Assembly: GCA_014804995.1 (NCBI GenBank)
Contig: JAAUYS010000197.1
Location: forward strand, 22,077-86,076
From: Clostridia bacterium
GTDB taxonomy: Bacteria > Bacillota > Clostridia > Christensenellales > Borkfalkiaceae
Length of the DNA: 64,000 nucleotides
Direction of reading: 5' to 3'
Positions 11,071 through 45,071 of the stretch are shown piece after piece; the stretch's first letter is position 1, and every line of letters begins with the position of its first letter. The translations under genes and the position numbers were made by a program. The notes under the pieces were generated by a model. That model was not told the origin of the DNA, ran no database searches, and was given only the letters and a program-made list of their open reading frames with translations.

Positions 11071-14000
11071 ATGAAAACTTTATTAGGGAAGGCAGGCAAG
11101 TTTAAACTTGTCGTTTTATTCACACTATGCGCAGTCATTTTGGGCTGTGCCGTTTTGCTGTGCTGTACGTTATTAAATAAAGAAAGCGACATACAGACGG
11201 CAGAAGAAACTACTACAACGATAGAAAGACCCGACAATATAGGGCAAACAACGGCTACAAGCATACCGTGCCCGCAGTTTAAAAGCGTATCCGGCGGTGG
11301 TGGTATTTTAACTCAAACTAGCACTATAGTAGTTGTATTATGGACCGGAAGTCCAATAACCGCGGATTTCAGTATAAACTATAATCCTTACTATATGACA
11401 ACCAGTGCTAGTGGTAACACTCCCGTCGTATCAGGAACAAATCCAGGACAGTATACCCTAACTTTTACAGTTAACACCGGCTATGCCTGGAGTGGCACTT
11501 CATCAACAAAATACACTTGCTATTTGGAAATAGTTAAAAGAGTGCCTGTACCGTCTTTTACCAGCGGTACTGCCGGCGTAGTAACCGGTAGCGGACAGTC
11601 GGCAACGGCGCCTTACACCGGAAGCAGTTTAACCGCAATTTTTGACACTAACTATGATTCTTCGATAATGACATCCACCGGTGGTGTTACGGGTGGCGCG
11701 CCGGTATTAGGCAGAACAGAAATCGGTTCGTCAACACTGACTATTAAATTTATAGATAATTCACATTATCAATGGGAAGACACACGGACTAGTGAAACTA
11801 GGACTTGTACGTTTACCGTAACCAAGGGTAATTACGATATGTCAGGCGCAAAGTGGGACTATACTTCGGCATTCACCTACGACGGTAGCTCCCACAGCGT
11901 ATCGGTTACGGGTCTTCCGAGCGGGGTTACGGTAAGTTCGTATTCAGGTACCAGAAGCGCAACCAACGCAGGCACGTATACCGCAGGCGTAACTTTAAGT
12001 TATGACAGCGCCCACTACAACGCGCCCTCTATAGGGAACCTGACCTGGACAATCAATAAGTACAACATTGCCAACGCGTCAATAACGCTGGATACAAGCA
12101 CTTACACATATGACGGCAATGCAAAAACGCCTACGCCAACGCTTAAAATGGGCAGTACCGTAATTTCAAGTTCGTACTATACCATAGCGCGTACCAACAA
12201 TACAAACGTAGGTACCGGAACGGTAACCGTTACGGCAAACGCAAACTCTGCCAACTTTACGGGAACCAAGTCAATAAACTTTACCATAAATAAAGCCAGC
12301 CAAACCGCGCCCACGATTACGGGAAGCGCTTCCGTAGTTTACGGCAGTGCAATAACGCTGTCGAGTTCGGGCAGTCAAACGGGCAATTATACCTGGTCGG
12401 TGTCTTCAACTACCGGCGGGGCTACGGCAACCCTCAGTTCAACCTCCGGCTCCTCCGTAACTCTTACGGGTACTAAGGCGGGCGGAACGGTAACTGTTAC
12501 GGTATACGGCAATTCGGGTGATAACTACAATCAATCAAGCAATACTACAAAAACCATTACCATAAGCGCGAGGAGCATAGTTGCTTACGCCTCGTGGTCG
12601 ATTAGCCCGGTAACTTATAACGGTTATGCTCACTCGCCCAAACCCGCGATAACGGACAGTACTAACCTCGTCAAGACGGCTCTTGTGGAAGATACGGACT
12701 TTACGTACAGCTACGAGAACAATACGAATGCGGGTACCGCAAGCATAACAATAACGGGTAAGGGCAACTACACAGGCTCCAAGACCGGACTGTTTACAAT
12801 TAACCCGCAAGCACTTACGGACGCGGACGTTTCCGCAATATCTAATTATACATATGCAAACGTGGCGATAAAGCCCGAGCCTACGGTGGCGATAGGGTCT
12901 AACTCAACGAGAAAAAACCTTGCAAAAGACAGGGACTTTACTTTCGGCTATACCGACAACGTAAATGCCGGCACTGCAACCTTAACTATTACGTTTAAGG
13001 GCAATTACAGCGGTGAGATAACCCGCAACTTCACCATAGAGGCAAGGGATATTTCAAACGTATCTTTCGGCACTATAAATAACCAGCCCTACACGGGTAG
13101 CGACGTTAGACCCCAACCCGCCATAACGGATACGGGGCTTACGCCCACTAAGGTTCTTACCGAGAACGTTGACTTTGCATTCGATTACACCGACAACGTA
13201 AACGTAGGTACGGCAACCATAAAGATTATAGGTGCAGGCAACTACAAGGGTGAAAAGCAAACCACCTTTACCATTATAAAGGGTACGTACGATATGTCAG
13301 GCGTAGCCTGGAACTACACGGGTGCGTTCCCCTATGACGGCACTACGAAGACCGTAACGGTTACGGGCTTGCCCACCGGGCTTAGCGTAAACGCGTACAC
13401 CGGCAACAGCGCAATCAACGTAGGCAATTATACGGCAAGCGTAACCTTTAATTACGACGCAACCAACTACAACGAACCCACGCTTGCTGACCTTGCTTGG
13501 CAGATTACTAAGGCAAGCTACGATATGACGGGCGTAACCTGGAACTATACAACGCCTTTCACCTACGACGGCACTTTAAAGACGGTGTCGCTTGTAGGCA
13601 CCCTGCCGGACGGCGTTACAATCGACGCGTACACCGGCAACACCGCAACTACCGTAGGTACGTATATTGCAACCGTAACGTTTACGTACGACGCAACGAA
13701 CTACACCGCACCCATCGTACCTACCCTGACCTGGGAGATAAGCAAAGCAACGTACGATATGACGGGCGTCAGCTGGGACTATACAACGCCTTTTATCTAC
13801 GACGGTACGCAAAAGACGGTAACGGTCGTTGGTACGTTCCCCGACGGCGTAACGGTAAAAGCGTACTTAAACAACGCAAAAACCAACGCGGACAGCTATA
13901 CGGCAAGCGTAACGTTCAACTACGATACTACTAACTACAACGAGCCTACCCTTGCAGATTTAAGCTGGGTAATCAATAAAGCTAACTACGATATGACGGG

Positions 14001-29649: not shown

Positions 29650-31350
29650 ATGGAAAAGAACGGAATTTACGAAGGCATCGTAAGCGCGTTAGGCACTGAC
29701 GGCGAAGGAATAATAAAAATAGAAGGCACGACGGCGTTTGTGCCTTTTTGTCTTGTAGGGGAAAACGTTAAATTTAAGGCGCTTAAAGTAAAGGACAATA
29801 TAGCTTACGGCAAGGTGGAAAGTATCGAAAGTGAGGCATATTCCCGCACCAATCCGCCTTGTAGCGTGTTTTATAAGTGTGGCGGGTGCGATATTCAGCA
29901 TATGGATTACACCGCCCAATTAGCTTTTAAAAAGGAGCAACTTTTCTCTACGCTGTGGAAAATAGGCGGTAACGAAACGAAAGTTGACGACGTAGTACCT
30001 TGCGACAGTCAGTTCAGGTACAGAAACAAGCTTTCACTGCCCATAGGCGTCAATGCAAACGGCGAAACCGTGTGCGGTTTTTACGCAAGACACAGCCACA
30101 GAATAGTTGAAATTGACGATTGCCTCATTCAGGCGGAGTGGGTTAAAAAAGTTATCTCCGCAGTGCTAAAATATGCGAAAGTAAGGCATATTAGGGGGTA
30201 TAACGAGGAAACCCGCACCGGAGAGCTGAGAAGAATAGTTGTAAGAGAGATTAAAAACAAGTACATTTTTGCCTTGGTTACGACAAAAATGCTTGATTTA
30301 GCCCCTCTTTTAGAGGAACTTGATAAAAATTTTGAAAATTACACCTTTTTAATCAATATAAACAAGTCGCAAAATAACGCAATTTTCTCGAAAGAGTGGC
30401 ATATATGCCGTGGTTTAGGCTTTTTTGAGGCGGAAGATAACGGTATTAAGTACAAGGCGGGGGCAAGCACCTTTTTACAGGTGAACGACGATGTTCGCGC
30501 AAAACTTTACGCCCGCGTGTTGGAAGAAGCCGATGAAAACGCCGTTGCAATTGACTTGTACAGCGGTGGCGGAATGCTTACTGCGATGCTTGCAAAGAAG
30601 TGCAAAAAAGCTTACGGCATAGAAATTGTCGAGGAAGCTTCCCGTTGCGCGGACGAGCTTAAAGAGGCAAACGGGCTAACTGTCAAGATGTTCAACGTTT
30701 GCGGAAAGGTTGAGGACAAGATAGACGAAGTCATTTCTAAAACCGACGGGTTGAAAAAAATTATCGTCTGCGACCCGCCGAGAAAGGGTATGGAGCGTTC
30801 CGTTGTAAAGGCGGTTTCTCTATCGGGTGCGGATAAGATTGTCCTTGTAAGTTGTAACCCCGCAACCCTTGCGAGAGATTTGGGGCTTTTAACGGGGGCG
30901 TTGGAAGATTTCAGCGGGGCTTTATACAAGACGTGCCGTAACGAGGGGCTTTACGAAGTAAAGAAGATAATTCCTTTCGATATGTTCCCTCAAACCAAGT
31001 GGTGTGAGACATTGGTTTGTCTTTCCCACAAAAAGCCCGACGGACATATCAACATAAAAGTTGAGTTCGGCGAAGAGGAAGAGCAAGTATCCTTAAAAGA
31101 AGTTGCCAAGCGTGCTGAAGAGCGTAAGCCAAAAGAAAAAGTAACTTATAAGAAAATTCAAGACTACATTGAAAAGACTTACGGCTTCAAAGTCCACACG
31201 GCTTATATTGCCGAAGTCAAGCGCAATTTAGGCTTACCTATGTACGACGCCCCTAACGCAGTCGAAGAACTGAAACATCCGCGTTCACATCCAACCCCGA
31301 AAATGGTGGAAGCGATCAAAGAAACGTTAAAACATTTTGAGATAATTTAA
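29650..31350 (+). CDS. rlmD: 23S rRNA (uracil-5)-methyltransferase RumA/RlmD family with C-terminal extension
   Basis: CGGCDIQHMDY; FLQVNDDVRAKLY; VSCNPATLARDLGLL; ~80-aa extra C-terminal domain. Confidence 0.92.
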   Translation: MEKNGIYEGIVSALGTDGEGIIKIEGTTAFVPFCLVGENVKFKALKVKDNIAYGKVESIESEAYSRTNPPCSVFYKCGGCDIQHMDYTAQLAFKKEQLFSTLWKIGGNETKVDDVVPCDSQFRYRNKLSLPIGVNANGETVCGFYARHSHRIVEIDDCLIQAEWVKKVISAVLKYAKVRHIRGYNEETRTGELRRIVVREIKNKYIFALVTTKMLDLAPLLEELDKNFENYTFLININKSQNNAIFSKEWHICRGLGFFEAEDNGIKYKAGASTFLQVNDDVRAKLYARVLEEADENAVAIDLYSGGGMLTAMLAKKCKKAYGIEIVEEASRCADELKEANGLTVKMFNVCGKVEDKIDEVISKTDGLKKIIVCDPPRKGMERSVVKAVSLSGADKIVLVSCNPATLARDLGLLTGALEDFSGALYKTCRNEGLYEVKKIIPFDMFPQTKWCETLVCLSHKKPDGHINIKVEFGEEEEQVSLKEVAKRAEERKPKEKVTYKKIQDYIEKTYGFKVHTAYIAEVKRNLGLPMYDAPNAVEELKHPRSHPTPKMVEAIKETLKHFEII

Positions 31351-31366
31351 TAAGAATAATAAAAAA

Positions 31367-31401
31367 TACGAACCGTTTTGATAGACGGCTCGTATTTTTT
31401 G
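31367..31401 (+). terminator. Terminator after rlmD
   Basis: aatacgaaccgttttgatagacggctcgtatttttt. Confidence 0.7.
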
Positions 31402-31660
31402 TTGTAGACGACTTTTAATTATTTATTGCGTCACTGCAGAGGGTTTCTCAACCGGAATAAAGCTAAAGCCAAAACTACTTACGGAATATAGGCCTTCTCT
31501 GCGTCAATTTAAATTATTTTCAAATTTTAGCAGATATCATTTTGACTAAAACTCAAATCTTAAATATGTACTATCTAAATTTTGGTATAGTGCTAATTCA
31601 CGGGTGGCTATTAGGTTGTTTTGGACTTTGTACTAAGTTTTCCTACTATAATTTATATTG

Positions 31661-31689
31661 TTGCTATTTTAACAAAATTGTGATACAAT
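31661..31689 (+). promoter_or_regulatory. Putative promoter of island operon
   Basis: TTGCTA-N17-TACAAT. Confidence 0.5.
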
Positions 31690-31767
31690 AAATGAAAAAG
31701 ATTTAATGCCTAATGATTAAAATGATTGTATGACAACTCTAACAAGTGTCTACAGCGTGAGATAGAT

Positions 31768-32472
31768 ATGTTAAATATAAGAATGAGAGCAGAAAAAAGC
31801 GGAAAACATATTTCTGGAGCTGAAAGAATTGTTGAAGATTCACTTCGGGATCAGGTAGTGCTTTCATTGCTTAAACGCGCTGAATCGAAAGATGCAGAGG
31901 CGATAAATATTAAAATCGAAACAATTTGTGAAGATATAAAACACATTCCTTGCATTTCTGGTCCATCTGGGACGGATAAAAGTTTAGAAGAAGCTAGATG
32001 TAAGATGAAGAACATTCTTGTCTCTCTCGGGTATGACGGGGAACAAATTTTAAAATTGTTTTTTGCTTTGTCTCGTTTGAGGGGTGCAACAATTGTAGAC
32101 GTGAATTCACTTGAGCGGTTGGAACCGGATAAGCAGCGCGGTATCCGTGTTAGTGCCTTTGATTCTATAAATCCGGATTTATCAGGGAAAAAAGATCACA
32201 GAAGAGAAGCAAAATTATTAGCAAGCAAAGTAATATCTTGCCCCAATGTGGTCGCTGAAATATGTGTAACAGATGATGTTAATTATACTTTTGGGTATAT
32301 TGCATCAAAAAAGTTAGGATATATAGGCATAACGCATGTTAAAGAACCGCAGCTTGAGTGGGGCGCACGTGTAATCTTGTTTGATGGTACAATTGGAAGC
32401 GGAAGTTATGAGGAAAAACTAAGTAGGACCATAGAATATTTAGAAAAAACGCCAATTCTTATTGATGAATAG
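31768..32472 (+). CDS. bioW: 6-carboxyhexanoate--CoA ligase (pimeloyl-CoA synthetase, BioW-like)
   Basis: MRAEKSGKHISGAERIV, RLEPDKQRGIRVS, LLASKVISCPNVVAEICVTDDVNYTFGYIASKKLGY, IEYLEKTPILI match the BioW family. ORF track starts at TTG 31726; ATG 31768 precedes the conserved start. Confidence 0.85.
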   Translation: MLNIRMRAEKSGKHISGAERIVEDSLRDQVVLSLLKRAESKDAEAINIKIETICEDIKHIPCISGPSGTDKSLEEARCKMKNILVSLGYDGEQILKLFFALSRLRGATIVDVNSLERLEPDKQRGIRVSAFDSINPDLSGKKDHRREAKLLASKVISCPNVVAEICVTDDVNYTFGYIASKKLGYIGITHVKEPQLEWGARVILFDGTIGSGSYEEKLSRTIEYLEKTPILIDE

Positions 32473-32556
32473 ACTTAATTTTTTCAAGTTTTTAATTTGT
32501 TGTTACGCAAGACCAATATAATTGCAGATTTAGGTGGCAGACTATGGGAGAAGGTT

Positions 32557-33327
32557 ATGGTATTTTTAAATTGGTTAAAAAATGCATTTATTGACGACTT
32601 GTTCGTAGGAATGGATTTGGGACAATTTATTCCAAGTTTGGTGGCAACAATTGTCGGTATCTTTGTACCATTTCTAATACAGAGACGTGTTGACAAGAAT
32701 CATAGAATTAATGACGCATTGCAACATCTTTGTGTTATCAGAGATGAGCTGCTATCCGTTAAAGACCAAATTGCTGAAATAGCACGTGAAAACTTTGATG
32801 GTTTACATTTGGCCCCCATCAAGACTCCCATATGGGATGGCTTGCGAAATTCTAATGGGCTAATACTTATCTCGGAATTGCACAATGAGTTGTTAAAGAA
32901 AGAAAAGGGGAAAAAGGCACAAGCGGAAAACACAATTGCAAAAAAAGATTGGTATGAGAGGATCTTTTCCGTCTATAGTGGGATTGATGAATATAATCGT
33001 TGGTGGAATTTATATTCGGATAAGGTATTTGAACAAGGCACAAAGGATGTTTTATATTCCATTGAGAAAAAATTGAGATCTATGGATGGCGCTTCCAAAA
33101 TAATAGATGGTGAGGCACAGACGAAAAAAAATGCTTTGACGAATATAGAAAAGGGTATAACTGACTTGGGCGATAAGCTTTGTGAAGAAATTAATAAAAC
33201 ACAGGAGCTCACCTCTCAGGTACAGCAAGAAAAAATCCCGCCGGAAAACATCACTTATTTAATTATGCTGATAAATGAAATAATCAATTCGCTATCCAAA
33301 CCATCAAAGGAAAAGAAGAAGAAATAA
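32557..33327 (+). CDS. Single-pass membrane protein with cytosolic helical domain, unknown
   Basis: FIPSLVATIVGIFVPFLIQRR TM segment; coiled-coil-like C-terminus; RBS gggagaagg before ATG 32557. Confidence 0.65.
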   Translation: MVFLNWLKNAFIDDLFVGMDLGQFIPSLVATIVGIFVPFLIQRRVDKNHRINDALQHLCVIRDELLSVKDQIAEIARENFDGLHLAPIKTPIWDGLRNSNGLILISELHNELLKKEKGKKAQAENTIAKKDWYERIFSVYSGIDEYNRWWNLYSDKVFEQGTKDVLYSIEKKLRSMDGASKIIDGEAQTKKNALTNIEKGITDLGDKLCEEINKTQELTSQVQQEKIPPENITYLIMLINEIINSLSKPSKEKKKK

Positions 33328-33349
33328 ATTTATCACGTAGGAAAAAAAT

Positions 33350-36196
33350 ATGACATTCTTTAATCCCTTACATCCAGAATTAAACGCAGATAATGAAAAA
33401 GCTCAAGTTGAGGTTCCCGCGCGGAATGAACTTTTGGAGAAGCACTTTGAGATAATTAAAAAATTATCTGGATCCTTAGATTTAAATACTACCTCTATTG
33501 ATTCAACGAACGAGCAGGAGGGTTCTCTGTCTGAAATCGATCAGATCTTTGTGTCAGTTCCAACAAATATCAGTATTGATGTGGTTGTAGAAAACAAGCG
33601 CATCAAAGAAATATCTGATGGTAACGCACACTATTGCGTCGGTGAGGACAGTAATAAATACAAGGATTGCATTGATACATTTAACGAGATTATTTCTCCT
33701 AATACTGAATTGGGGCTGGAAGCATCTTCAAAACGCTCGTTGATTCTTCGTCCATATTGGAAAGATGGAACAATTAAGAACTTTTTATGTTTAAAGCCTA
33801 TTGATATTATCGCCTCAAACCATTATAGTATCGCATTGGGCGGACCTGGATCGGGGAAAAGCACATTGCTAAAATATCTGTCGGTATTATTAGCAAAGCA
33901 ATATTATAGTGATTCCGATTTGCTGAAGCAAGATGCTTATTCCAAGTTCTTCTTCAGACAAAAATATATTCCTGTTTTTGTACAATTGCGTCAGTTGTTT
34001 ACTGTCATAGACATTGTCCAAGATCCAATAACGAATATAACGGAAAATGCATTGCTGCAATTTTTGTTTGATAAACCAGAATATGAAAATAAATGGAGAG
34101 AGTTAGGCAACCTACTTGCCCAAAATAATGTTATTCTGTTTTTTGATGGCATTGACGAAATATTTGTCGGGAACGTACGTCAAGTTGTGCAGAGGCTTGT
34201 AAGGGTAGCAAAAGAAATCAACCCTGATGTTAAAATTGTTTTTTCAAGCAGAAAAGAAAGCTATTCTACTTGGCAGTTGAACGATTTTATGGCATTTGAA
34301 TTATGTCCTATTGACAAGCCGTGCCAACAACTTTTGGCACGGAAAGTTTTAGAGACATATCTTTTCCCTGATTTTGACGAAAAATATAAAACTCTTATCG
34401 AGCAATTGAACCATTGCGGATTGGATGAACGCATAGTTGGAAATCCGTTATTTCTATCTCTAATGGTTGTTATATACGCCGTAAATGGTGAATTGCCCGA
34501 TCAGAAAAGCGTAATGCTTGATCAAAGTATTAAATTTTTGATAAGGCGTTGGCAAGCAAAGATATCGAGCACGAATACAAATAACAACTACGAAGTGGAT
34601 CAGCTGTATGCTGCTTTAAAGGGTATTGCTTATTTCACTATAAATGATGTCGCTTTAAACGCCAATCCGCTGATTATAAGAAAAGAAACAATTCTCACCG
34701 CATTAGAGGCACTTGTAGCCCGAAATGCTCTTGACGCTTTTATTACAAATAACGACATTATTGCAAAGCGAGAGATGCTTTTGAAATGCTTGCAGGATAG
34801 CGTGGGTGTTATTGTTCCATCTGTGGCAACAGACCAGTTTGAATTTTCTCATAGGCACTTTCAAGAGTATCTTGTAGCCAGTAAAATTGTTGAACAGCCC
34901 GACTTGCAAAAGTTTTTATTGGACATAATCATTTCCAATAAAGGTGTTCATCAAGAGATATATTTTATGGTTATAGAAATACTCTTTGACAAGGCTGAGT
35001 ATTTAAAAATTTGGTCTCTGCTGCAATATTTTATGTGTAGTAAACGTTTTAGTGCAGTAGATGATACTTTAAAAGCCTGGATAACGTGGTTTTGTTGCAG
35101 AGTGGTTGCATTAAGAGATTATACATTGTTAGAAACGGCCGCTGAAAACGACTTTATGACTCAAAGTGTTTTAACAACTCTCAACAAGTACACAAATACT
35201 TTAATTTCTACAACGAATGAACTGTCTCTTAAACAACGAATCGAGTGCGCGAGATTTTTGGGTGAGATTCAGGAAAAAGTAGAATTAAAAACGCAAACGG
35301 ATTTTGCCACTGACATAGCACAAGAATTGGGTGATAAACGCGAGGGAGTAGCATTAAACAAAGACACTTTGCCGGATATCATTTGGTGTAACATACCTGA
35401 GGGTGATTTTACAATGGGTATCACCGACGAAGAGGTAAAAATTATTCAATGCGACCATCCGGATTCGGACTTCAGCCGTGAGCAGCCTTGCGTTGGCTTG
35501 CATATAAAAGAATTTGAAATCAGTAAATATCCTATTACTATAGCGCAGTTTATGGCCTTTGTGGAAGCCGGAGCATATGAGAACCGTGAGTATTGGCAAT
35601 GGTCAGAAGTTAGCAAGGAGTGGTTTGAAAAAGTAGGTTCAAAAAAAATAGATCCGGCAAAGGGTTTCCAAAAGCCCAATGTGATAAACGCTCCAATTGT
35701 GGATATATCATGGATAGAGGCCGTAGGATTTTGCGTGTGGTTAGGCAAGCTTACAAATACAAAAATTCGATTGCCGTATGAATCTGAATGGGAATATGTG
35801 GCAAAAAGACATTATCGTACATATAGCTATTCTGAAGAGTTTGAAGTCGAAAAGTATGTCAGCAGGCGGCTAGGCTTGGAGGCGGCTGCGCCGGTGGGAG
35901 TCCATATGTGCGAATATGAAAATTATCCAAGCGATTTAACTGGTAACATTTGGGAATGGACACAAACTTTGATTCCAATAGATCAGGAGCATCTTAAGGA
36001 CTACATCCGCCTACAATCCAAGAGAGATATAGAGCTTTCATCAAAGGAGCTTAATAAGGATTCCCGCATGGTTGCAAGAGGTGGCTCGTTTTTAAATGTG
36101 GCATTTCAGGACAGAAACAGCTATCGTGGAAGGGATTATATCTGGAACCACATCACTAGGAGACAGGGATTCCGTATAGTAAAGGAGCATACCTAA
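33350..36196 (+). CDS. NACHT (STAND) NTPase fused to C-terminal formylglycine-generating-enzyme/SUMF1-like domain
   Basis: Walker A LGGPGSGKSTLLKYL, Walker B VILFFDGIDEIF, VFSSRKESY; C-terminal IPEGDFTMG..EFEISKYPITIAQFMAFVE..RLPYESEWEYVAK..LTGNIWEWT..VARGGSFLN..GFRIV. Confidence 0.85.
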   Translation: MTFFNPLHPELNADNEKAQVEVPARNELLEKHFEIIKKLSGSLDLNTTSIDSTNEQEGSLSEIDQIFVSVPTNISIDVVVENKRIKEISDGNAHYCVGEDSNKYKDCIDTFNEIISPNTELGLEASSKRSLILRPYWKDGTIKNFLCLKPIDIIASNHYSIALGGPGSGKSTLLKYLSVLLAKQYYSDSDLLKQDAYSKFFFRQKYIPVFVQLRQLFTVIDIVQDPITNITENALLQFLFDKPEYENKWRELGNLLAQNNVILFFDGIDEIFVGNVRQVVQRLVRVAKEINPDVKIVFSSRKESYSTWQLNDFMAFELCPIDKPCQQLLARKVLETYLFPDFDEKYKTLIEQLNHCGLDERIVGNPLFLSLMVVIYAVNGELPDQKSVMLDQSIKFLIRRWQAKISSTNTNNNYEVDQLYAALKGIAYFTINDVALNANPLIIRKETILTALEALVARNALDAFITNNDIIAKREMLLKCLQDSVGVIVPSVATDQFEFSHRHFQEYLVASKIVEQPDLQKFLLDIIISNKGVHQEIYFMVIEILFDKAEYLKIWSLLQYFMCSKRFSAVDDTLKAWITWFCCRVVALRDYTLLETAAENDFMTQSVLTTLNKYTNTLISTTNELSLKQRIECARFLGEIQEKVELKTQTDFATDIAQELGDKREGVALNKDTLPDIIWCNIPEGDFTMGITDEEVKIIQCDHPDSDFSREQPCVGLHIKEFEISKYPITIAQFMAFVEAGAYENREYWQWSEVSKEWFEKVGSKKIDPAKGFQKPNVINAPIVDISWIEAVGFCVWLGKLTNTKIRLPYESEWEYVAKRHYRTYSYSEEFEVEKYVSRRLGLEAAAPVGVHMCEYENYPSDLTGNIWEWTQTLIPIDQEHLKDYIRLQSKRDIELSSKELNKDSRMVARGGSFLNVAFQDRNSYRGRDYIWNHITRRQGFRIVKEHT

Positions 36197-36576
36197 TGAG
36201 TTTTTTTGTAATATCAAAAGAAGGTAATGGCCCGGTTTTCAGAAAAGGAGACTATGCTGAGCTGTGCTATGAGATTCGTATCGCATGCGAAAACCCTCCA
36301 GAAGCCAAATGTAAGGGATGCCATGAGGGAACTCGTCCGAGAGATCCCGCAGAGAAAGGTGTTGCATGCGTTTACATTGGTGATGGGCAGGTGCACAAGT
36401 TTATCGATGATGCCTTATCAAGTGGACAATTTCGGCATGGAAGTGCAATTCTATTTTATTTATCTGCAGAGGATGCCTTTGCAGATGTCGGTGCGGATAA
36501 CCGTGTGGGACCAAATAGTGCACTTTGCGTTCGCATTGAGGAAGTATCGTTTAATTCATATGGTAAGAACAAATAA
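36196..36576 (+). CDS. Unknown 126-aa protein translationally coupled to the NACHT-FGE gene
   Basis: TAATG stop/start overlap at 36194-36198; CKGCHEG motif; no family recognised. Confidence 0.65.
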   Translation: MSFFVISKEGNGPVFRKGDYAELCYEIRIACENPPEAKCKGCHEGTRPRDPAEKGVACVYIGDGQVHKFIDDALSSGQFRHGSAILFYLSAEDAFADVGADNRVGPNSALCVRIEEVSFNSYGKNK

Positions 36577-36602
36577 TCCAATAGGTTTTTAGAATCATTG
36601 AT

Positions 36603-37115
36603 ATGAAAGCGTTATCAAAAAACATGTTTCGTTTAAGAAAAATTTTCCATAAATGTCTTCCTAGAACGGGTGCTTTAGGAAGAATGGTTGAGTTAACGAT
36701 TAAAAAAACATCGCATACTCAGCTTGGAAATAATCTTCGGATTGCTTCATTTGGCACGCTTCGGGTTTATGGAAATGCCACGCTGCACATAGGCGAAAAT
36801 TTTCAATCTAATAATGGCTTGATGCTGATTTGTCGAAATCAAGTAAAAATTGGGCGAGACGTTACAATTGGTCCCAATGTTTGTATCGTGGATTTTAATC
36901 ATGATTTCAACCATGAAAATTTGCGGGATAATTTTATAATGGGCTCTGTAGAAATAGGCGACAATGTTTGGATTGGCGCAAGCGTCATTATCTTTCCGAA
37001 TAGCGTGATAGGCAACAATTGTGTGATTGGCGCAGGTAGTATTGTCACAGGAACAATACAGGATGGGACAATATATTTTAATCAAATACAAAAAGTTCAA
37101 AAAAATAAGAGTTAA
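36603..37115 (+). CDS. Left-handed beta-helix (hexapeptide) acyltransferase
   Basis: IGRDVTIGPNVCIVDFNHDF..VEIGDNVWIGASVIIFPNSVIGNNCVIGAGSIV. Confidence 0.85.
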   Translation: MKALSKNMFRLRKIFHKCLPRTGALGRMVELTIKKTSHTQLGNNLRIASFGTLRVYGNATLHIGENFQSNNGLMLICRNQVKIGRDVTIGPNVCIVDFNHDFNHENLRDNFIMGSVEIGDNVWIGASVIIFPNSVIGNNCVIGAGSIVTGTIQDGTIYFNQIQKVQKNKS

Positions 37116-37161
37116 TAATTCGATGTTTTAATATCAAGAGAAATAAAAAAAGAGGTGTTTT

Positions 37162-38127
37162 ATGAAACAACTTAAAGGCATTGCACTTGGAACCTTCCCA
37201 TTCGCTAATGTATTCGGAAAAATCGATGAACATACGGCTTCGCAGATTTTACGTCAATACATTGAGTATGGCGGTGAATTCATTCATGTTTCACTCGTCT
37301 ATAACAACGGCGCAGTGGAAGAGCTCCTCGGGAAGGAATTGAAGAAGTATCCCCGAGATTCCTATAAGATCATGGCTTGTTGCGGATGGTCGATGAACAA
37401 CGGAGTTACTAAATTAAGTGGTAAGAAAGAAGATGTGGAGGCTTGCTGCAACGGAGCCTTGCAAAGATTGGGATTGGATCATTTGGATGTTTTGATGTCT
37501 CATGCTCCTGATTCGCAGACGCCATTCGAGGAAACGATTGACGCGATGGACCGCCTTAAAAGGGCGGGCAAATGCTCAGAATTGTGTGTATCAAATGTCT
37601 CGCTGGAAATGCTCAAGCGATATAATTATAGCGGCGCGGTTAACTATATCCAAAACAGATTTAGCTTATTAAATCAGTCGCTGAGCAAGGAGCTTATCGA
37701 CTATTGCACGGGAAATGATATAAAAATAACGACGTATCAAACTGTAGAAAGGGGATTATTGTCAGACCGTGTAATTAAAGGATTAGATTTCACGGCCACT
37801 GATTTGCGCGCTAAAAAGCCCGAGTTTGCTGAATCGATTCAATCTGAAATCGGAAAATGGATCAGCAAGGAAATTAAACCCATAGCCAACGACGAGGGTG
37901 TTCCCGTCTTGTCGCTTGTTTTGAGATGGACGTTGCAAAATCAACCTATTAATGCTATATTGTGCGGTATCTCTAAACCCGCGTATTTCTCAGATTATCT
38001 TTCTGTTGCAAAGGATATGCTTTCTACAGAAACAATTGCAAGAATTAATCAGGCTTACGATAAATTCTCGTCTTATATAGAGGAGAAATACCAGAAGAGT
38101 ATTCGTGCCTTCATGGGTTTAGCTTAA
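37162..38127 (+). CDS. Aldo/keto reductase
   Basis: LGLDHLDVLMSHAPDS..AMDRLKRAGKCSELCVSN..VLRWTLQNQPINAILCGISKP. Confidence 0.8.
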   Translation: MKQLKGIALGTFPFANVFGKIDEHTASQILRQYIEYGGEFIHVSLVYNNGAVEELLGKELKKYPRDSYKIMACCGWSMNNGVTKLSGKKEDVEACCNGALQRLGLDHLDVLMSHAPDSQTPFEETIDAMDRLKRAGKCSELCVSNVSLEMLKRYNYSGAVNYIQNRFSLLNQSLSKELIDYCTGNDIKITTYQTVERGLLSDRVIKGLDFTATDLRAKKPEFAESIQSEIGKWISKEIKPIANDEGVPVLSLVLRWTLQNQPINAILCGISKPAYFSDYLSVAKDMLSTETIARINQAYDKFSSYIEEKYQKSIRAFMGLA

Positions 38128-38159
38128 ATCTGTGGACGTGTCTAAAGAAGAGGACAAAC

Positions 38160-39455
38160 ATGCAAAAGAAAATTTTGATTATCGGCGTTGGTCCGGTTGG
38201 ATTGTCTACGGCGATTGGTTTTGCGCACGCAGGACATGAGCTTATATGCTATGATATCGATAAAGAACGTATCGATGCATTGAAAAATGGAATCGCTCCT
38301 TTTTACGAGAGGGATTTACAATATACTTTAAGTATGCACGCAGATAAAATCCTTTTTACTGATAACTTAAAGGAGGCTTTTCAAGATTCGAATATTTTCT
38401 TTATATGCGTTGGAACACCGATTGGACACAATAATAGTGTAGACATGACTGCCATTTGGAACTCGATTGACATTATTGCAAAAAATGTAAAACATGATTC
38501 AACGATTGTTATTAAGTCTACAGTGCCAATTGGAACCAACAAAAAGGTTGTCCATTACATAGATAAATTGGGTCTCAAATACAAGATAGGTGTTGTCTCT
38601 AATCCTGAATTTTTGGCGCAAGGCACATCGATACAGGACACCATTAAGGCGACGCGAATCGTTATAGGTTGCAATACGCCACAGCTACGTGAGCTTATGC
38701 TGAACATTTACGATAAATTCAGTGGAGAGAAAATCGTTACCACACCTGAAAGCGCTGAGCTTATAAAATATGAATCAAATTGCTATTTGGCAATGCGTGT
38801 ATCATTTGTGAATGACCTTGCACATGTTTGCGATTTGGTTGGGGCAGATGTAACGTCCGTTTTGAAAGGTGTTACATTAGACCCGCGTATCGGTACGCGT
38901 TATTTTGAGCCCGGTTTGGGGTATGGCGGTTCATGCTTCCCGAAGGATACGATTTGCTTCCATAATCAAATTCAAAGCGAATACGGTTATGAACAGGAAC
39001 TTATTGAGGCGACCATCGATATAAACAGTAGACATGTGCTGCGCTTGTGCAGAAAAATGATGGACAATTGTGGTGGCAGCATCATGAATAAGAAGGTCAG
39101 TGTTTTGGGAATGTCGTTCAAAAAAGACACGGATGATGTGAGGAACTCGCTAGCTGTCAATATTGTTTCATATCTCATTTCCAACGGTGCAATTGTTTCT
39201 GTATGGGATCTCAAGGCAATGGAAAATGCAAAAAAGATATTCCAAGACAGTGTAATTTATGCCAATTCGCTTGATGAGGCCATTGCTGCAAGTGATATTA
39301 TCTTTATTGCGACAGATTGGAATGAAATTGTGGATGGTCCACTCGATCGGTTTTGTAATAAAAGCGTGTATGACGGCAGAAACTGCTTTTTAAATCGAAA
39401 GGAAGAAATTACTTTCAATTACTACTATGTTGGTGGCACAATCAGTGAAAAATAA
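38160..39455 (+). CDS. UDP-glucose/UDP-ManNAc 6-dehydrogenase family
   Basis: ILIIGVGPVGLSTAIGFA, VSNPEFLAQGTSIQD, GLGYGGSCFPKDT, FKKDTDDVRNS. Confidence 0.92.
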   Translation: MQKKILIIGVGPVGLSTAIGFAHAGHELICYDIDKERIDALKNGIAPFYERDLQYTLSMHADKILFTDNLKEAFQDSNIFFICVGTPIGHNNSVDMTAIWNSIDIIAKNVKHDSTIVIKSTVPIGTNKKVVHYIDKLGLKYKIGVVSNPEFLAQGTSIQDTIKATRIVIGCNTPQLRELMLNIYDKFSGEKIVTTPESAELIKYESNCYLAMRVSFVNDLAHVCDLVGADVTSVLKGVTLDPRIGTRYFEPGLGYGGSCFPKDTICFHNQIQSEYGYEQELIEATIDINSRHVLRLCRKMMDNCGGSIMNKKVSVLGMSFKKDTDDVRNSLAVNIVSYLISNGAIVSVWDLKAMENAKKIFQDSVIYANSLDEAIAASDIIFIATDWNEIVDGPLDRFCNKSVYDGRNCFLNRKEEITFNYYYVGGTISEK

Positions 39456-40587
39456 AGATACAAGCAAAAAAATCCGAGTTGTTGTCGTTGGGGGAATAAG
39501 AACCCATTATATTAAAATTCACGCCATTCAAAAAGTATTTTCAAAGTTCTCTGCAGAGCTTCAAGATCGGTTTGAGATAATTTATGTCAATGTAGGGCAA
39601 CACTATGATTATGCTTTAACTTGCCACATAGAGACCTTACACGTTCATTTTGATTATACGCTTCAACATGAATCAAAGAATTCGTATGATATTCTATCGA
39701 CTATTTTCAACCGTTTTGGAGAATTAATAGATACCATATCTTTGAACGGAAAAATTGATTATGTTGTAGTAATGGGCGATGTTGCCACTACAGCTGTTGC
39801 TGCTATGGTGGCTGTTATAAAATCAATCAAAGTAGTACACATTGAAGGTGGCGGCCGTGTTGGAAGAGGTAACGGCAACGAAGAATATTACAGAACAATT
39901 GCCGACCATTGCTCAACACTCTGTTTTGCAAGTACCCAAGAATCTAATAAAAATCTTTTGTCAGAAGGGTTGGGGGTACGCTCCTGTTTTTCCGGTGATA
40001 TCATGTACGACTATGTGAAGGATTATTTTCAAAACGAATCTTTCACAGAGTTTGACTATGTTCTCGAAAACGAACACAAAAGCTACCAACTGGGAAGGCC
40101 GTATATCTTATCATCTTTGCACCATGTCGAAAATATAGATGAGAATTTGTTGCAGAATTTATTTCTCATTTTGAGCGATTCGAAATATGACAGTATTTTT
40201 ATAGCTCATCCGCGAATTAAAAAGTTCATTGCAGACAAACGTATTGATACACGCAAGACCCTTGTTGTTGACGCAATTCCATATCAAGAAAATTTGAAGG
40301 CGATCAAGAATAGTGTTTTTTGTCTTACCGATTCTGGCGGAATACAGAGAGAGGCATATTATTTCAATAAGCGTTGCATTGTTTGTAGTGATTTAACTGT
40401 TTGGAAAACGATTATTAAAACGGGAAGCAATATCCAAATTGGCAAAACCCTGGAAGAGTTGAAGCGTGGCATCCAGTGGGCCGAAGAAAATGCAACTGTC
40501 GATTATAAGTACAATGGCTGCTTTGGCGATGGGCAAGCAGTTCAAACGATTTTTAAAACTATTGTAAAACATTATGAAACTGTCTGA
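39427..40587 (+). CDS. wecB: UDP-N-acetylglucosamine 2-epimerase-like
   Basis: NVGQHYDYALT, VVMGDVATTAVAAMVA, VVHIEGGGRVG, LTDSGGIQREAYYFNKRCIV. Confidence 0.8.
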   Translation: MLVAQSVKNKDTSKKIRVVVVGGIRTHYIKIHAIQKVFSKFSAELQDRFEIIYVNVGQHYDYALTCHIETLHVHFDYTLQHESKNSYDILSTIFNRFGELIDTISLNGKIDYVVVMGDVATTAVAAMVAVIKSIKVVHIEGGGRVGRGNGNEEYYRTIADHCSTLCFASTQESNKNLLSEGLGVRSCFSGDIMYDYVKDYFQNESFTEFDYVLENEHKSYQLGRPYILSSLHHVENIDENLLQNLFLILSDSKYDSIFIAHPRIKKFIADKRIDTRKTLVVDAIPYQENLKAIKNSVFCLTDSGGIQREAYYFNKRCIVCSDLTVWKTIIKTGSNIQIGKTLEELKRGIQWAEENATVDYKYNGCFGDGQAVQTIFKTIVKHYETV

Positions 40588-41458
40588 TTTTATTTGTTGT
40601 AATTTAGTGATAGAACAAGATTGCGAATTTGATGCATTCATGAAGCTTGGCGACCATTTTGATGGTCGCGCCGTGACGTTCGTCGAAAATGAAAAGTACA
40701 TTGGTCAAGCTCTTGGTAATAAAAATGTTGTTGGAGTGATAATATGCAAAGCTTTAGGATCGAAAATAAAAAAAAGCCATTTGGGGATTGCATATTCTTC
40801 TTCTCCAAAGGCGTCATTTATTCGCATGAACAATATGATGACTCGCAATGACAGCATAACAAGAATCGGTATTAATTGTAATATATCAAGTACAGCCAAA
40901 ATTCATCCTAAGGGGGTTGTAATCGGCGATAATGTTACGATTGAAGACAATGTAATGATTCACGCCGGTACGGTCATAGGATCTAATAGCTTTGTTGGCA
41001 GGTATAGTGATGTTGGCAGTAATTGCTATGAGAGATGTTTAGATGAAAATGGTAATCATGTAATAGCAACTCATAACGGCGGTGTGCTGATTGGAAACGA
41101 TGTCATTATTGAACAGGGCGTGGTGATTGATAGGGCTCTTTTCATTTGGGACAATACTGAAATTGCAGACCAATGTTACATCGGTCGCGATTCTGGTATT
41201 GCCCACGGATGCAAAATAAATGAAGGCGCATATATCTATCCCAGAGCAGTTTTATGCGGTAATGTAACTGTAGGGAGACACAGTAAAATCGGCATTGGCG
41301 CAATTGTTTCTAACAGGATTCAGGTTGGAGAGTACGCGGACATTAAACTGGGTAGCATTGTCACTAAAAATGTTGATAATAACGAAGCCGTGTCTGGTAA
41401 TTTTGCGATTCCGCATTCCATTTTGATTGAAGCGATAAAAAAGTTAGTGAAGCGGTAA
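40574..41458 (+). CDS. LpxD-like left-handed beta-helix acyltransferase
   Basis: Hexapeptide repeats (IHPKGVVIGDNVTIEDNVMIHAGTVIGSNSFVG..VGRHSKIGIGAIV); 14-nt overlap with upstream gene. Confidence 0.75.
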   Translation: MKLSDFICCNLVIEQDCEFDAFMKLGDHFDGRAVTFVENEKYIGQALGNKNVVGVIICKALGSKIKKSHLGIAYSSSPKASFIRMNNMMTRNDSITRIGINCNISSTAKIHPKGVVIGDNVTIEDNVMIHAGTVIGSNSFVGRYSDVGSNCYERCLDENGNHVIATHNGGVLIGNDVIIEQGVVIDRALFIWDNTEIADQCYIGRDSGIAHGCKINEGAYIYPRAVLCGNVTVGRHSKIGIGAIVSNRIQVGEYADIKLGSIVTKNVDNNEAVSGNFAIPHSILIEAIKKLVKR

Positions 41459-41479
41459 TAAACAAGGGATTAACTGGCT

Positions 41480-41677
41480 TTAATTTATGGTAGTGGCACA
41501 TTAAAACAGATTTATGAGTTGATAAATAAACAAAGCGATATTACTATTGATGAATTGATTAAAACTTCGCACAAGGCGCGAAGAACAGTAGCGCGTGCAA
41601 TAAGTGAGCTGAAAGAGAAAGGTTTTATTGAACGTGTCGGCTCAAAGAAAACGGGCTTTTGGAAGATATTAAAATAA
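41480..41677 (+). pseudogene. Fragment of winged-helix DNA-binding protein (RecG/AlbA_2-like C-terminus)
   Basis: Open frame without ATG: LIYGSGTLKQIYELINKQSDITIDELIKTSHKARRTVARAISELKEKGFIERVGSKKTGFWKILK*. Confidence 0.55.
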
Positions 41678-41727
41678 TATAGTGTCAGGCAAATACCTGA
41701 TACAATAAACAAATTAATAAACGGTTA

Positions 41728-41760
41728 AAGGAAGTCGGAACTAGCTGACTTCCTTTTTTG
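41728..41760 (+). terminator. Rho-independent terminator
   Basis: AAGGAAGTC-N10-GACTTCCTTTTTT. Confidence 0.8.
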
Positions 41761-41810
41761 TACCCCCAATGTTAAAGTTTGATGAAATTTTTAGTTGTGC
41801 GGTTGTATTT

Positions 41811-42047
41811 TTGCCTATAAGTGTGCTTGGTTAAGTAGGGGGGGATTTTCTTGAGAAATTTTTGCCTGCGCGTAAATATTTTCGAGAAAAGTGTCCTTGG
41901 ATAAGTGAAGGGAATTTTACGTTAGACCCCGAACTTTTTAAGAAAAGTGTGCTTGGTTATATGGAGGGACGTTCAAATTCTTTCAAGAAATTTCTATTTA
42001 GACCGCCACGTTTTTAAGAAAAGTGTCCTTGGTATAGTAGAGGGATG
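41811..42047 (+). repeat. Four imperfect direct repeats aagaaaAGTGTSCTTGGwtAwrtrgaGGGA
   Basis: gtgtgcttgg/gtgtccttgg cores start at 41821, 41891, 41947, 42023. Confidence 0.85.
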
Positions 42048-42304
42048 TTTTAGGGAGGTGGTGCTTATGCGCTATTAACAAGACTTGCAAGCGGTCTATA
42101 AATACTTGCGCCAAATAAACTAAACGGAGGTATAAACTGCAAATAAAATCAGGGAAGCAAACGGCAATCACAAGAGAGGGGAACCGCACCATTATCCGTA
42201 TGGATTGGAAGCAGGTAAAGCAAAGTACACCATTTTGTACTTTGGGGCTTTTCGCAGAGCGAAAACGAACAAGTGGGAAACCCACTTTTCAGGAGGAGGA
42301 TTAA

Positions 42305-42754
42305 ATGAATAGAAATGCTATATTGAGCGGTAATACAAGGCAGTATATTTCAGTTACGGATTGTTATATGCTAGAAATGATCGAGAAGTTGTTGCCGCAC
42401 TATAAGAGCTTTAATCGGCTTGTAAATGATGCACTACAATACGGGTTGCCGATGTTGATGGAGAGTAAACTCGGCGACCGCGTGCAGTTAGAGGAAGAGA
42501 AACGTCCACAGCCGATAGAAGTAAAAACTGTATCCGATGAAAGCATAGCCGAGATAGTAAAACTACTGCAAGAGATAGTGATGAATACGACGATAAACAA
42601 GTCAGTATTATGCTCATTGTTTAACGCCAAGAGTTCTGAATTAAAAGGTAAGCCTATACCTGCAGAAAAGTTTGATAGCGGTGCAATGCGAGATACGCCG
42701 ACTTGTTTTATGAAATATGAGATTGATATGCTAAACGCAATGGACAACGATTAG
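42305..42754 (+). CDS. Mobile-element accessory protein, unknown
   Basis: 149 aa, strong AGGAGGAGG RBS, next to recombinase module. Confidence 0.55.
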   Translation: MNRNAILSGNTRQYISVTDCYMLEMIEKLLPHYKSFNRLVNDALQYGLPMLMESKLGDRVQLEEEKRPQPIEVKTVSDESIAEIVKLLQEIVMNTTINKSVLCSLFNAKSSELKGKPIPAEKFDSGAMRDTPTCFMKYEIDMLNAMDND

Positions 42755-42865
42755 TATAAGCCCCAGTCGTATTAACATTCGTAAAACGCTTGACTCTACG
42801 AACCTAAGTAAGTATAATATATGTAATCGTATAAATACGACAAGATATTTTCACGGAGGTTTGTT

Positions 42866-43150
42866 ATGGAAAACAACAGAAAGGTAAAGGACAAGCGTTA
42901 CGAGGACAAGCACAAGGCTGAACGCAAAGCCAAGTGTATGGTATGGGGAACGAGTGTACCGAGAGAGAAAGCCGAAGAGATAAATGAGTTTTTGAAAAGA
43001 TATGGCTACACAAAGGTACAGCTGATTGAAGCAGGATATAAAGCGCTCATTGAGCAGGCGGCAGAGCATAATACCGACCTTGCGAAGACAATGGACGGCT
43101 ACGATGATTTTTTCGGTTTTGAAGGAATCGATAAAAAGAAAACCGAGTAG
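42866..43150 (+). CDS. Small mobile-element protein, possibly RHH-type
   Basis: 94 aa charged; VPREKAEEINEFLKRYGYTKVQLIEAGYKALIEQ; GGAGG RBS. Confidence 0.5.
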   Translation: MENNRKVKDKRYEDKHKAERKAKCMVWGTSVPREKAEEINEFLKRYGYTKVQLIEAGYKALIEQAAEHNTDLAKTMDGYDDFFGFEGIDKKKTE

Positions 43151-43255
43151 TTGAAATGTTATCGCAAAAGGAGGAACACGCGATGGAGAGAGAACATAGT
43201 ATTCAAAGCTATAAGGATGCGGAATAATTCCGACAGCACATCCGAATAAGGATAC

Positions 43256-43402
43256 TTGATTACTAACCAAAACACAAATAAAGAAAAAGAGAATTTTAAT
43301 GCGTTTATCGATATGATGGCGCAACTAATTCAGAAGTACGGGCAAAGCGTATTGAACGATACGGCAACCGAAATGGAGGAAGCCAATGAACAGGGAAGGT
43401 AA
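43256..43402 (+). CDS. 48-aa ORF overlapping recombinase start
   Basis: TTG start: MITNQNTNKEKENFNAFIDMMAQLIQKYGQSVLNDTATEMEEANEQGR*; not in supplied track. Confidence 0.35.
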   Translation: MITNQNTNKEKENFNAFIDMMAQLIQKYGQSVLNDTATEMEEANEQGR

Positions 43403-45071
43403 AAAGTGTTTTTTATATTCAAGGGTAAGTACAGAAATGCAAGTGGACGGGTACAGTCTTGAAGCACAAAAAAACTGCTTGAAAAAGTTTGCCGAGCGGG
43501 AAGAAATGCAGATAGTAGAATACTACGAAGATGCAGGTAAATCTGGTAAGTCGATAGAAGGACGCCCTGCTTTCAAGAAAATGCTTTCGGACATAGAGAG
43601 CGGGCAAAGCGTGGATTATATTCTCGTTTATAAACTTTCTCGTTTCGGAAGAAATGCGGCGGATATTCTTAATTCATTGGAGTTAATTCAGACCTACGAT
43701 GTGAACTTGATTTGCATTGAAGAGGGGATTGATTCCTCGCAGACAAGCGGAAAGTTACTTATATCCGTATTGTCTGCCGTTGCAGAAATCGAAAGAGAGA
43801 ACATACTTGAACAAACTATGAACGGCAGACGTGAAAAGGCAAGACAAGGTTTGTGGAACGGCGGTCCTGCACCATACGGTTATACTCAAAAGGATAATAC
43901 CCTTGAAATTAACGAAGAAGAAGCTAATGTGGTACGCCTTATTTTCGATAAGTTCGCTAACAGCAGTATGGGTTACGGCGGTGTTGCTAAATATCTCAAT
44001 TTGCAGGGTATAAGTAAAAACACGCACAAAGAAAGTGATATAACCGTTTGGAGCGGCAGGTGTATTCAAAGCATTTTGGATAATCCCGTCTATATCGGTA
44101 AAATTGCTTACGGCAGACGAACAAAAGAAAAAGTTAAAGGTAGCAGTAATGAATACAGATACGTTAATTCTGATGAGTATCTTTTATATGACGGGAAACA
44201 CGAAGCAATTGTTGATAATGAAACTTGGGAGAAAGTCAGAGCGAAACGGCAATCGACAGGAGTAAAAGCTCCGTCAAAGGTCGGACGTGAAAGAGTACAT
44301 CTATTATCAGGGTTATTGCGTTGCCCTAAATGCGGTAGTCCTATGTACGCTAACCGTCATTACTGGACGAATAAGGACGGCACTTACAATGACATTTATT
44401 ACTACTTTTGCTCACACAGCACAAAGACACGGGGCGGTTCGTGTGATTATAATGCAAAATTGAGAAAGACGGATATAGAGCCGTATGTAATTGAAACATT
44501 AAAAGAGTTGGTGCGTGGAGAAAATTTTGCCGAAGAAATCCAAAGCCGTATAGGCAAAGATGTAAATACCGAACTTATAGACAGAGAATTATCCGGGTAT
44601 AAAAAGAAGTTGTCGGAAGTAAACACAAACAAAGCTAACCTTGAAGACAGTATTAATAATTTACCGCTTGACGTCAAATTCAGAGAGCGCAAGCTAAAGG
44701 ATATGCAAATGCGTTTAGACGCTCTCTATGAAACAATATCCGAGCTTGAAGAAAAAATAGAAGACGCTTCATTGCGTAAGAAGGCTATGGAAGAAGAGGC
44801 AATGACGCTTGATAACATATATAAATTGTTGTTGTCTTTTGATGAGATTTATGATAAAATGACAGAAGACGAGCAAAAGCTAATGCTGACCTATCTCGTT
44901 AAAAACATTCAGATATATGCTAATGACGAAGGCGCAATAATGCCGTTGAAGTCTATAACCTTGAATTTTCCGATATTCAAGGATAACAGAGAGGTAAACC
45001 ATATTTTGTGGAAGAAAGACGGTAGCGTCGAGACGCTTGTCGTTCTTGAAAGAAAGGAGAGTGCAAAATGA
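43386..45071 (+). CDS. Large serine recombinase
   Basis: LYSRVSTEMQVDGYSLEAQ; YKLSRFGRNAADILN; zinc-ribbon LLRCPKCGSPMY..CDYN; C-terminal coiled coil. Confidence 0.97.
   Translation: MNREGKKCFLYSRVSTEMQVDGYSLEAQKNCLKKFAEREEMQIVEYYEDAGKSGKSIEGRPAFKKMLSDIESGQSVDYILVYKLSRFGRNAADILNSLELIQTYDVNLICIEEGIDSSQTSGKLLISVLSAVAEIERENILEQTMNGRREKARQGLWNGGPAPYGYTQKDNTLEINEEEANVVRLIFDKFANSSMGYGGVAKYLNLQGISKNTHKESDITVWSGRCIQSILDNPVYIGKIAYGRRTKEKVKGSSNEYRYVNSDEYLLYDGKHEAIVDNETWEKVRAKRQSTGVKAPSKVGRERVHLLSGLLRCPKCGSPMYANRHYWTNKDGTYNDIYYYFCSHSTKTRGGSCDYNAKLRKTDIEPYVIETLKELVRGENFAEEIQSRIGKDVNTELIDRELSGYKKKLSEVNTNKANLEDSINNLPLDVKFRERKLKDMQMRLDALYETISELEEKIEDASLRKKAMEEEAMTLDNIYKLLLSFDEIYDKMTEDEQKLMLTYLVKNIQIYANDEGAIMPLKSITLNFPIFKDNREVNHILWKKDGSVETLVVLERKESAK

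What the first reader, a model, noticed from the sequence alone, without database searches (positions are those of the whole stretch)
31661..41458. Candidate new conflict/signalling cassette: BioW-like ligase + membrane protein + NACHT-FGE NTPase + small protein + sugar-nucleotide/acyltransferase genes
Seen: nine co-directional genes with short gaps or overlaps (TAATG at 36196, 28-nt overlap at 39427, 14-nt overlap at 40574), one recognisable upstream promoter, visibly AT-richer than the flanking backbone, and a recombinase module just downstream. Known: NACHT STAND NTPases act in bacterial antiphage defence, and FGE/SUMF1 domains are fused to STAND NTPases in proposed conflict systems. Inference: the BioW-like ligase could supply an acyl-CoA to the two hexapeptide acyltransferases acting on an epimerised/oxidised UDP-sugar, with the NACHT-FGE and membrane protein as sensor/effector. 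I do not recognise this combination. The alternative is two unrelated modules side by side.
Basis: partly seen in the sequence, partly recalled or inferred. Interest (0 to 1): 0.82.

Follow-up and report, generated by a model that had tools for sequence, protein, structure and literature searches.

The report
Mobile island carrying NLR-like defence gene
The nine genes are the cargo of a 14-kb mobile island that has inserted itself into the end of a ribosomal-RNA methyltransferase gene; the cargo includes a probable phage-sensing protein of the NLR (NACHT) type next to what look like separate sugar and acid-activating genes, so the island is a new variant of a known kind and probably not one new nine-part machine.

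Summary
In detail: nine co-directional AT-rich genes with short gaps or overlaps, and a recombinase downstream. All of it, recombinase included, is one 14.0-kb element (31006-45034). The element sits in the 3' end of rlmD (rumA) and has swapped 3' ends between rlmD and its own large serine integrase, the arrangement published for rumA-targeting integrases. A congener keeps the empty site. Other congeners carry different defence-like cargo at the same site: a 2TM effector with a nucleotidyltransferase, a DrmD-like helicase with SieB, and a GIY-YIG protein.

The NACHT-FGE protein has intact Walker motifs. Its FGE domain lacks the catalytic cysteines. Relatives are TIR-NACHT-FGE or nuclease-like-NACHT-FGE proteins, one of them diversified by a retroelement (DGR); this one is not. 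It is translationally coupled to a 126-aa, possibly FKBP-like protein and preceded by a one-TM protein that could be its effector.

BioW is real but orphaned: no bioB was found, and Arg213 of the pimelate pocket is Gly. In about 80 NACHT-FGE-type loci no BioW, TM or 126-aa homologue occurs nearby. The sugar genes resemble polysaccharide clusters.

Best reading: a defence-carrying integrative island with two or three independent cargo modules. Defence function is inferred, not shown.

The parts
31006..45034 (.). Whole integrated element (about 14.0 kb) between attL and attR
   Evidence: rlmD of congeners ends a few codons after ETLVVL and is followed by other genes; in G453 (L056) rlmD, the MTIHHDKL gene, glpK and the 291-aa gene are on one contig without the element
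31006..31010 (.). attL core GAGAC in rlmD codons ..WC-ET-LVCL
   Evidence: alignment with native rlmD 3' ends and with attR
45030..45034 (.). attR core GAGAC in the 3' end of the integrase gene, ..[15 protein letters not shown]
   Evidence: matches the native rlmD terminus HVETLVVLENK
29650..31350 (+). rlmD (rumA) with element-encoded C-terminal extension (about aa 454-566)
   Evidence: 566 aa here and in occupied congeners, about 460 aa in empty ones
31661..31689 (+). Promoter-like site, extended -10
   Evidence: promoter-like sites in the region are near chance number
31768..32472 (+). Orphan BioW-like acyl-adenylate/CoA ligase; Arg213 position is Gly
32557..33327 (+). One-TM protein with long helical cytosolic part; candidate effector
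   Evidence: no family match in Pfam, NCBIfam, PADLOC or PHROGs; hydropathy peak residues 23-42
33350..36196 (+). NACHT-FGE STAND NTPase, candidate sensor
   Evidence: PF24883 4.6e-7, NACHT 1.3e-4 (just under its cut-off), PF03781 4.2e-29; Walker A GGPGSGKST and Walker B VILFFDGIDE
36196..36576 (+). 126-aa protein translationally coupled to NACHT-FGE; possibly degenerate FKBP fold with a CxxC insert
   Evidence: only sub-threshold hits, all FKBP-type: PDB wheat FKBP E 1.3, NCBIfam GldI PPIase E 0.031
36603..37115 (+). Hexapeptide acyltransferase 1 (WbbJ/LacA-like)
37162..38127 (+). Aldo/keto reductase
   Evidence: PF00248 3e-47
38160..39455 (+). UDP-sugar 6-dehydrogenase (TuaD-like subfamily)
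   Evidence: TIGR03026 1.6e-115
39427..40587 (+). UDP-GlcNAc 2-epimerase-like (Epimerase_2)
   Evidence: PF02350 1e-52
40574..41458 (+). Hexapeptide acyltransferase 2 (LpxD/NeuD-like repeats)
41787..42049 (.). Four about 61-nt direct repeats (iteron-like)
42305..42754 (+). 149-aa element protein, unknown
42866..43150 (+). 94-aa element protein, unknown
43386..45071 (+). Large serine integrase (Ccr-like; PHROG integrase)
   Evidence: PF00239, PF07508, PF13408; phrog_95 1e-117

Best explanation
The region is the cargo of a 14-kb integrative element. Its large serine integrase recombined attP, inside the integrase gene, with attB in the 3' end of rlmD (shown by sequence). The site is a hotspot where congeners carry different defence-like cargo (shown). 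Here the defence-type cargo is a membrane protein, a NACHT-FGE STAND NTPase and a 126-aa protein. Proposed mechanism (inferred): the non-catalytic FGE/C-type-lectin domain, perhaps with the 126-aa chaperone-like protein, detects a phage product or a disturbed host protein. The NACHT domain exchanges ADP for ATP and oligomerises, and, having no fused effector, acts through the adjacent one-TM protein to damage or depolarise the membrane and abort infection. The BioW-like ligase and the five sugar-nucleotide and acyl genes are most likely separate passengers: an acid-activating enzyme that probably no longer reads pimelate, and a set modifying a UDP-HexNAc or its uronic acid for surface glycans.
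For: Element: native rlmD ends, the empty site and the swapped 3' ends; the same arrangement is described for rumA-targeting ICEs in PMC4701971. Hotspot cargo: 2TM effector plus NTP_transf_6 and a PDC-S31 homologue in L045, GIY-YIG/UzuA-like in L046, DrmD-like helicase 1e-117 plus SieB 2e-16 in L303; left end conserved 72-90% in four congeners. NACHT-FGE: with relatives TIR-NACHT-FGE (L012) and the long-N-terminus proteins L094 and L096. L096 has a reverse transcriptase, a 120-nt repeat pair and 12 of 13 TR-VR differences at adenines. Bacterial NACHT proteins defend against phage, and bNACHT25 senses through the chaperone DnaJ (PMC12169576). No co-occurrence with BioW; no bioB hit in the genome.
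Against: No phenotype is known. The 126-aa and membrane proteins have no confident homologue, so their roles are guesses. The NACHT Pfam score is just below its cut-off (22.2 against 26.7), though NPHP3_N passes. There is no clear terminator between the NACHT module and the sugar genes, so all nine could be one transcript. The genome is a MAG, 84% complete and 6.5% contaminated.
Confidence: 0.62

Rival explanations
1. One integrated nine-gene conflict/signalling cassette: BioW makes an acyl-CoA, the acyltransferases load it on an epimerised or oxidised UDP-sugar, and the product is either a signal or a protective surface change governed by NACHT-FGE.
For: Co-directional genes with short gaps, 26 nt between the 126-aa gene and acyltransferase 1; no strong internal terminator; BioW is an orphan in a genome with no bioB hit and has an altered pocket, so it probably does something other than make biotin.
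Against: No NACHT-FGE relative has BioW, the TM protein or the 126-aa protein nearby. Epimerase homologues sit in polysaccharide-type clusters. BioW homologues elsewhere mostly sit with bioF or bio genes. No glycosyltransferase or transporter is encoded.
Confidence: 0.1
2. Two linked units: BioW + membrane protein + NACHT-FGE + 126-aa as a defence operon in which BioW makes an adenylate or thioester that arms or gates the system, with the sugar genes unrelated.
For: BioW lies directly upstream in the same orientation and next to the promoter-like site; genome has no bioB hit; R213 to G predicts a different substrate (PMC9544090).
Against: 84-nt gap to the membrane gene, no co-occurrence elsewhere, no precedent found (BioW is not mentioned in PMC7159879).
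Confidence: 0.17
3. Non-defensive cargo: NACHT-FGE acts as a regulator of surface polysaccharide made by the sugar genes, and the island changes the cell surface, which may itself block phage adsorption.
For: Five sugar-nucleotide and acyl genes follow directly; surface change is a known route to phage resistance.
Against: NACHT-FGE relatives carry TIR or nuclease-like N-termini, one is DGR-diversified, and none is tied to this set of sugar genes; cargo at the same site in congeners is defence-like.
Confidence: 0.1

Closest known systems
rumA (rlmD)-targeting serine-integrase ICEs/IMEs of Firmicutes (PMC4701971)
   Same: Same target gene, attR inside the integrase gene, reciprocal exchange of the 3' parts of rumA and integrase genes.
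   Different: Only 14 kb; no relaxase or conjugation gene recognised among its ORFs; very short shared core (5 bp, within the 2-21 bp published).
Bacterial NACHT (bNACHT/STAND) antiphage proteins such as bNACHT25
   Same: Central NACHT NTPase with C-terminal candidate sensor; Walker A/B and the FxHRxFQEYL block present.
   Different: C-terminal FGE/C-type-lectin domain; no fused N-terminal effector recognised; TM protein and 126-aa protein encoded alongside.
DGR-diversified NACHT/STAND-CLec (FGE) proteins (PMC10907252) and L096 found here
   Same: NACHT fused to a non-catalytic FGE-type C-type-lectin domain.
   Different: No template repeat in the own genome assembly and no reverse transcriptase in the element; sensor is fixed.
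BioW, 6-carboxyhexanoate-CoA ligase (PDB 5flg, 5tv5)
   Same: Full-length family match; both pocket tyrosines and the second Arg kept.
   Different: Arg213 is Gly; below both NCBIfam equivalog cut-offs; no bioF neighbour; no bioB hit in the genome.
SCC elements with Ccr recombinases
   Same: Integrase is Ccr-like (CcrB model 253 bits) and inserts at the 3' end of an rRNA methyltransferase gene (SCC uses rlmH; general knowledge).
   Different: Far below the CcrB cut-off (900 bits); rlmD rather than rlmH; a single integrase.

Membership tests
rumA-type serine-integrase element | Single large serine integrase with Resolvase, Recombinase and zinc-ribbon domains | tested here: met
rumA-type serine-integrase element | Insertion in rumA with exchange of the 3' parts of rumA and integrase genes | tested here: met
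   against PMC4701971
ICE/IME (conjugative or mobilizable) | Relaxase or conjugation genes | tested here: not met
   No relaxase or coupling protein among the main ORFs in 31006-45034; small genes or an oriT not excluded
Bacterial NACHT antiphage protein | NACHT NTPase core with Walker A and B | tested here: met
   (NPHP3_N above cut-off, NACHT slightly below); motifs read from sequence; Walker A invariant in A2
Bacterial NACHT antiphage protein | Protection against phage | not testable with these tools
   needs expression and plaque assay
Formylglycine-generating enzyme / EgtB | Catalytic cysteine pair in the C-terminal GGS motif | tested here: not met
   GGSFLNVAFQDRNSYRGR has no Cys; the position of the Cys pair is from general knowledge
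DGR target protein | Template repeat and reverse transcriptase nearby | tested here: not met
   No second DNA copy of the FGE end in the own genome assembly; no RT among the element's annotated ORFs
BioW | Family match over full length | tested here: met
   PF03744 190 bits against cut-off 25
BioW | Pimelate-binding Tyr199, Tyr211 and Arg213 (B. subtilis numbering) | tested here: not met
   Both Tyr kept, Arg213 is Gly (PMC9544090)
BioW | Role in biotin synthesis | tested here: not met
   No bioB hit in the 84%-complete genome; no bioF beside it
FKBP-type peptidyl-prolyl isomerase (126-aa protein) | Significant family match | tested here: inconclusive
   No Pfam hit even at E 10; sub-threshold hits only; single-sequence model pLDDT 34

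The most novel reading that the evidence does not exclude
A four-gene defence system in which a BioW-type ligase, freed from biotin synthesis, activates an unknown acid (as adenylate or CoA ester) that a NACHT-FGE sensor, helped by an FKBP-like partner, uses or guards to trigger a membrane effector: an acyl-adenylate branch of bacterial NLR-type immunity.
Probability: 0.1. Interest if true: 0.8.

Novelty: new variant of a known kind. Interest (0 to 1): 0.42.

Why it matters
It identifies the rlmD 3' end as a hotspot for mobile defence-like cargo in a genus known here mainly from assembled genomes, and gives a compact NACHT-FGE operon without a retroelement and without a fused effector. That makes it testable whether FGE domains sense infection and whether a separate TM protein and a chaperone-like protein complete the system. 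The orphan BioW with an altered pocket is a concrete lead for a new acid-activating activity.

Tried and rejected
Genome-wide scan with the NACHT-FGE protein alone found nothing. Viral-contig scans with the 126-aa, NACHT-FGE, BioW, epimerase and membrane proteins found no relative. The alignment query in viral contigs returned mainly FGE-only matches; those loci were not searched for the partner genes. The membrane protein has no match in 392 genomes of the class, nor in plasmids or phages. The 126-aa protein has no credible match in 321 genomes (one partial hit with three stops) or plasmids. Structure predictions failed for lack of depth (pLDDT 34 and 37), so no fold search was made. DGR control rejected: no template repeat in the own genome. 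Biotin role rejected: no bioB hit. The search of PF02348 in the own genome was a wrong accession choice and carries no weight. No Rfam family in the element.
Full report
Observation. The nine ORFs lie where stated, all on the + strand, with short gaps or overlaps. GC is 0.36-0.41 from 31 to 45 kb against about 0.44-0.50 outside. The ATG of the 126-aa gene overlaps the NACHT-FGE stop (TAATG) and has a good ribosome site, so those two genes are probably translationally coupled. The upstream promoter is plausible, but such matches are near chance in this stretch.

What it is. Next to the genes lies a large serine integrase, and the whole stretch is one integrated element. In congeners rlmD ends a few codons after '..ETLVVL'. 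In G453 the order rlmD, MTIHHDKL gene, glpK, 291-aa gene is kept on one contig without the element, with one unrelated enzyme gene and a small gene between. In the window rlmD continues into an element-encoded tail of about 110 residues, and the integrase ends with '..[15 protein letters not shown]', the native end of rlmD, directly before the MTIHHDKL gene. The shared core is GAGAC at 31006-31010 and 45030-45034, which gives an element of about 14.0 kb. A reciprocal exchange of 3' ends between rumA and a single serine integrase is exactly what PMC4701971 describes for rumA-targeting ICEs. No relaxase or conjugation gene was recognised.

The site is a hotspot. At least five congeners in the set have the same tailed rlmD (G011, G451, G449, G001, G030), and four of them share 72-90% DNA identity with the window's left end. 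Neighbouring cargo, where readable, differs and looks defensive: a protein matching a 2TM effector model fused to a nucleotidyltransferase domain, next to a PDC-S31 homologue (L045); a GIY-YIG/UzuA-like protein (L046); and a DrmD-like SNF2 helicase followed by a SieB superinfection-exclusion protein (L303). This is the best support for a defence role of the window's NACHT gene.

The NACHT-FGE protein. It has Walker A and B, a conserved FSHRHFQEYL block and a C-terminal FGE domain. The FGE C-terminal motif has no cysteine, so it is most likely a binding domain of the C-type-lectin kind. The nearest full-length relatives found are a TIR-NACHT-FGE protein on a Chlorohelix plasmid (25% identity) and Acidobacteriota proteins with a long, nuclease-like N-terminus (my reading; no Pfam match there). 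One of the latter (L096) is followed by a reverse transcriptase and a template repeat; 12 of 13 differences between template and variable repeat are at template adenines, so it is a DGR target. This agrees with published DGR-diversified NACHT/STAND-CLec sensors (PMC10907252). The window's protein has neither a recognised effector domain nor a template repeat in the genome assembly. Its effector is therefore probably separate; the adjacent one-TM protein is the candidate. The 126-aa protein has only sub-threshold matches, but PDB and NCBIfam both point to FKBPs. That is a lead, interesting because bNACHT25 senses phage through the chaperone DnaJ (PMC12169576).

BioW and sugar genes. The BioW match is beyond doubt, but the protein misses both equivalog cut-offs and has Gly where BioW has the pimelate-binding Arg213, keeping both tyrosines (PMC9544090). 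bioB gave no hit in the genome. The enzyme is therefore unlikely to serve biotin synthesis and may activate another acid. The five genes 36603-41458 are typical nucleotide-sugar and acyl-transfer enzymes, without glycosyltransferase or transporter. Several homologues of the epimerase sit with UDP-sugar dehydrogenase in other genomes, and none of the 14 stretches examined has a NACHT or BioW relative.

In the NACHT-FGE and FGE loci recovered from GTDB genomes (80), class genomes and plasmids, no BioW, membrane or 126-aa relative was found within the flanks held (up to about 8 kb). The membrane protein and BioW were searched in 392 genomes of the class and the 126-aa protein in 321: no relative of the membrane protein, no credible relative of the 126-aa protein, and only three other BioW-bearing genomes; in the two opened, BioW is beside or fused to bioF. 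The claim of one nine-gene system is therefore unsupported, with the limit that close relatives of the two unknown proteins were not available at all.

Verdict. The element, its insertion mechanism and its hotspot nature are well supported. The defence role of the NACHT-FGE module is a reasoned inference. The BioW and sugar genes are most likely passengers. Shown: gene content, att sites, empty and occupied sites, cargo of congeners, catalytic and pocket residues, lack of co-occurrence. Inferred: sensing by FGE, effector role of the TM protein, FKBP fold, substrates.

Noticed in passing
L096 7263-12133 (Acidobacteriota MAG, JAJCXR010000046.1): DGR with a long-N-terminus NACHT-FGE target, variable repeat 10137-10256, template repeat 10403-10522 and reverse transcriptase 11021-12133; 12 of 13 differences at template adenines.
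   Followed up: yes
L045, L046, L303 and the window: 3' end of rlmD: rlmD 3' end in this genus is a recurrent insertion hotspot with variable defence-like cargo (2TM-nucleotidyltransferase, PDC-S31-like, GIY-YIG, DrmD-like helicase plus SieB).
   Followed up: partly
window 41787-42049: Four imperfect 61-nt direct repeats with core AAGTGT(G/C)CTTGG upstream of the 149-aa element gene; iteron-like, function unknown.
   Followed up: partly
window 41480-41676: Short open stretch reading as a winged-helix C-terminus (GSGTLKQIYELINKQSDITIDELIKTSHKARRTVARAISELKEKGFIERVGSKKTGFWKILK), perhaps the remnant of a larger regulator.
   Followed up: no
window 36196-36576: The 126-aa protein has an inserted cysteine cluster (CENPPEAKCKGC) that could bind metal.
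   Followed up: no
L219 4001-4729 (Pseudalkalibacillus plasmid NZ_CP156675.1): A bioW followed by a cytochrome P450 gene on a plasmid, with no other bio gene in the listed neighbourhood; the P450 may supply its acid.
   Followed up: no
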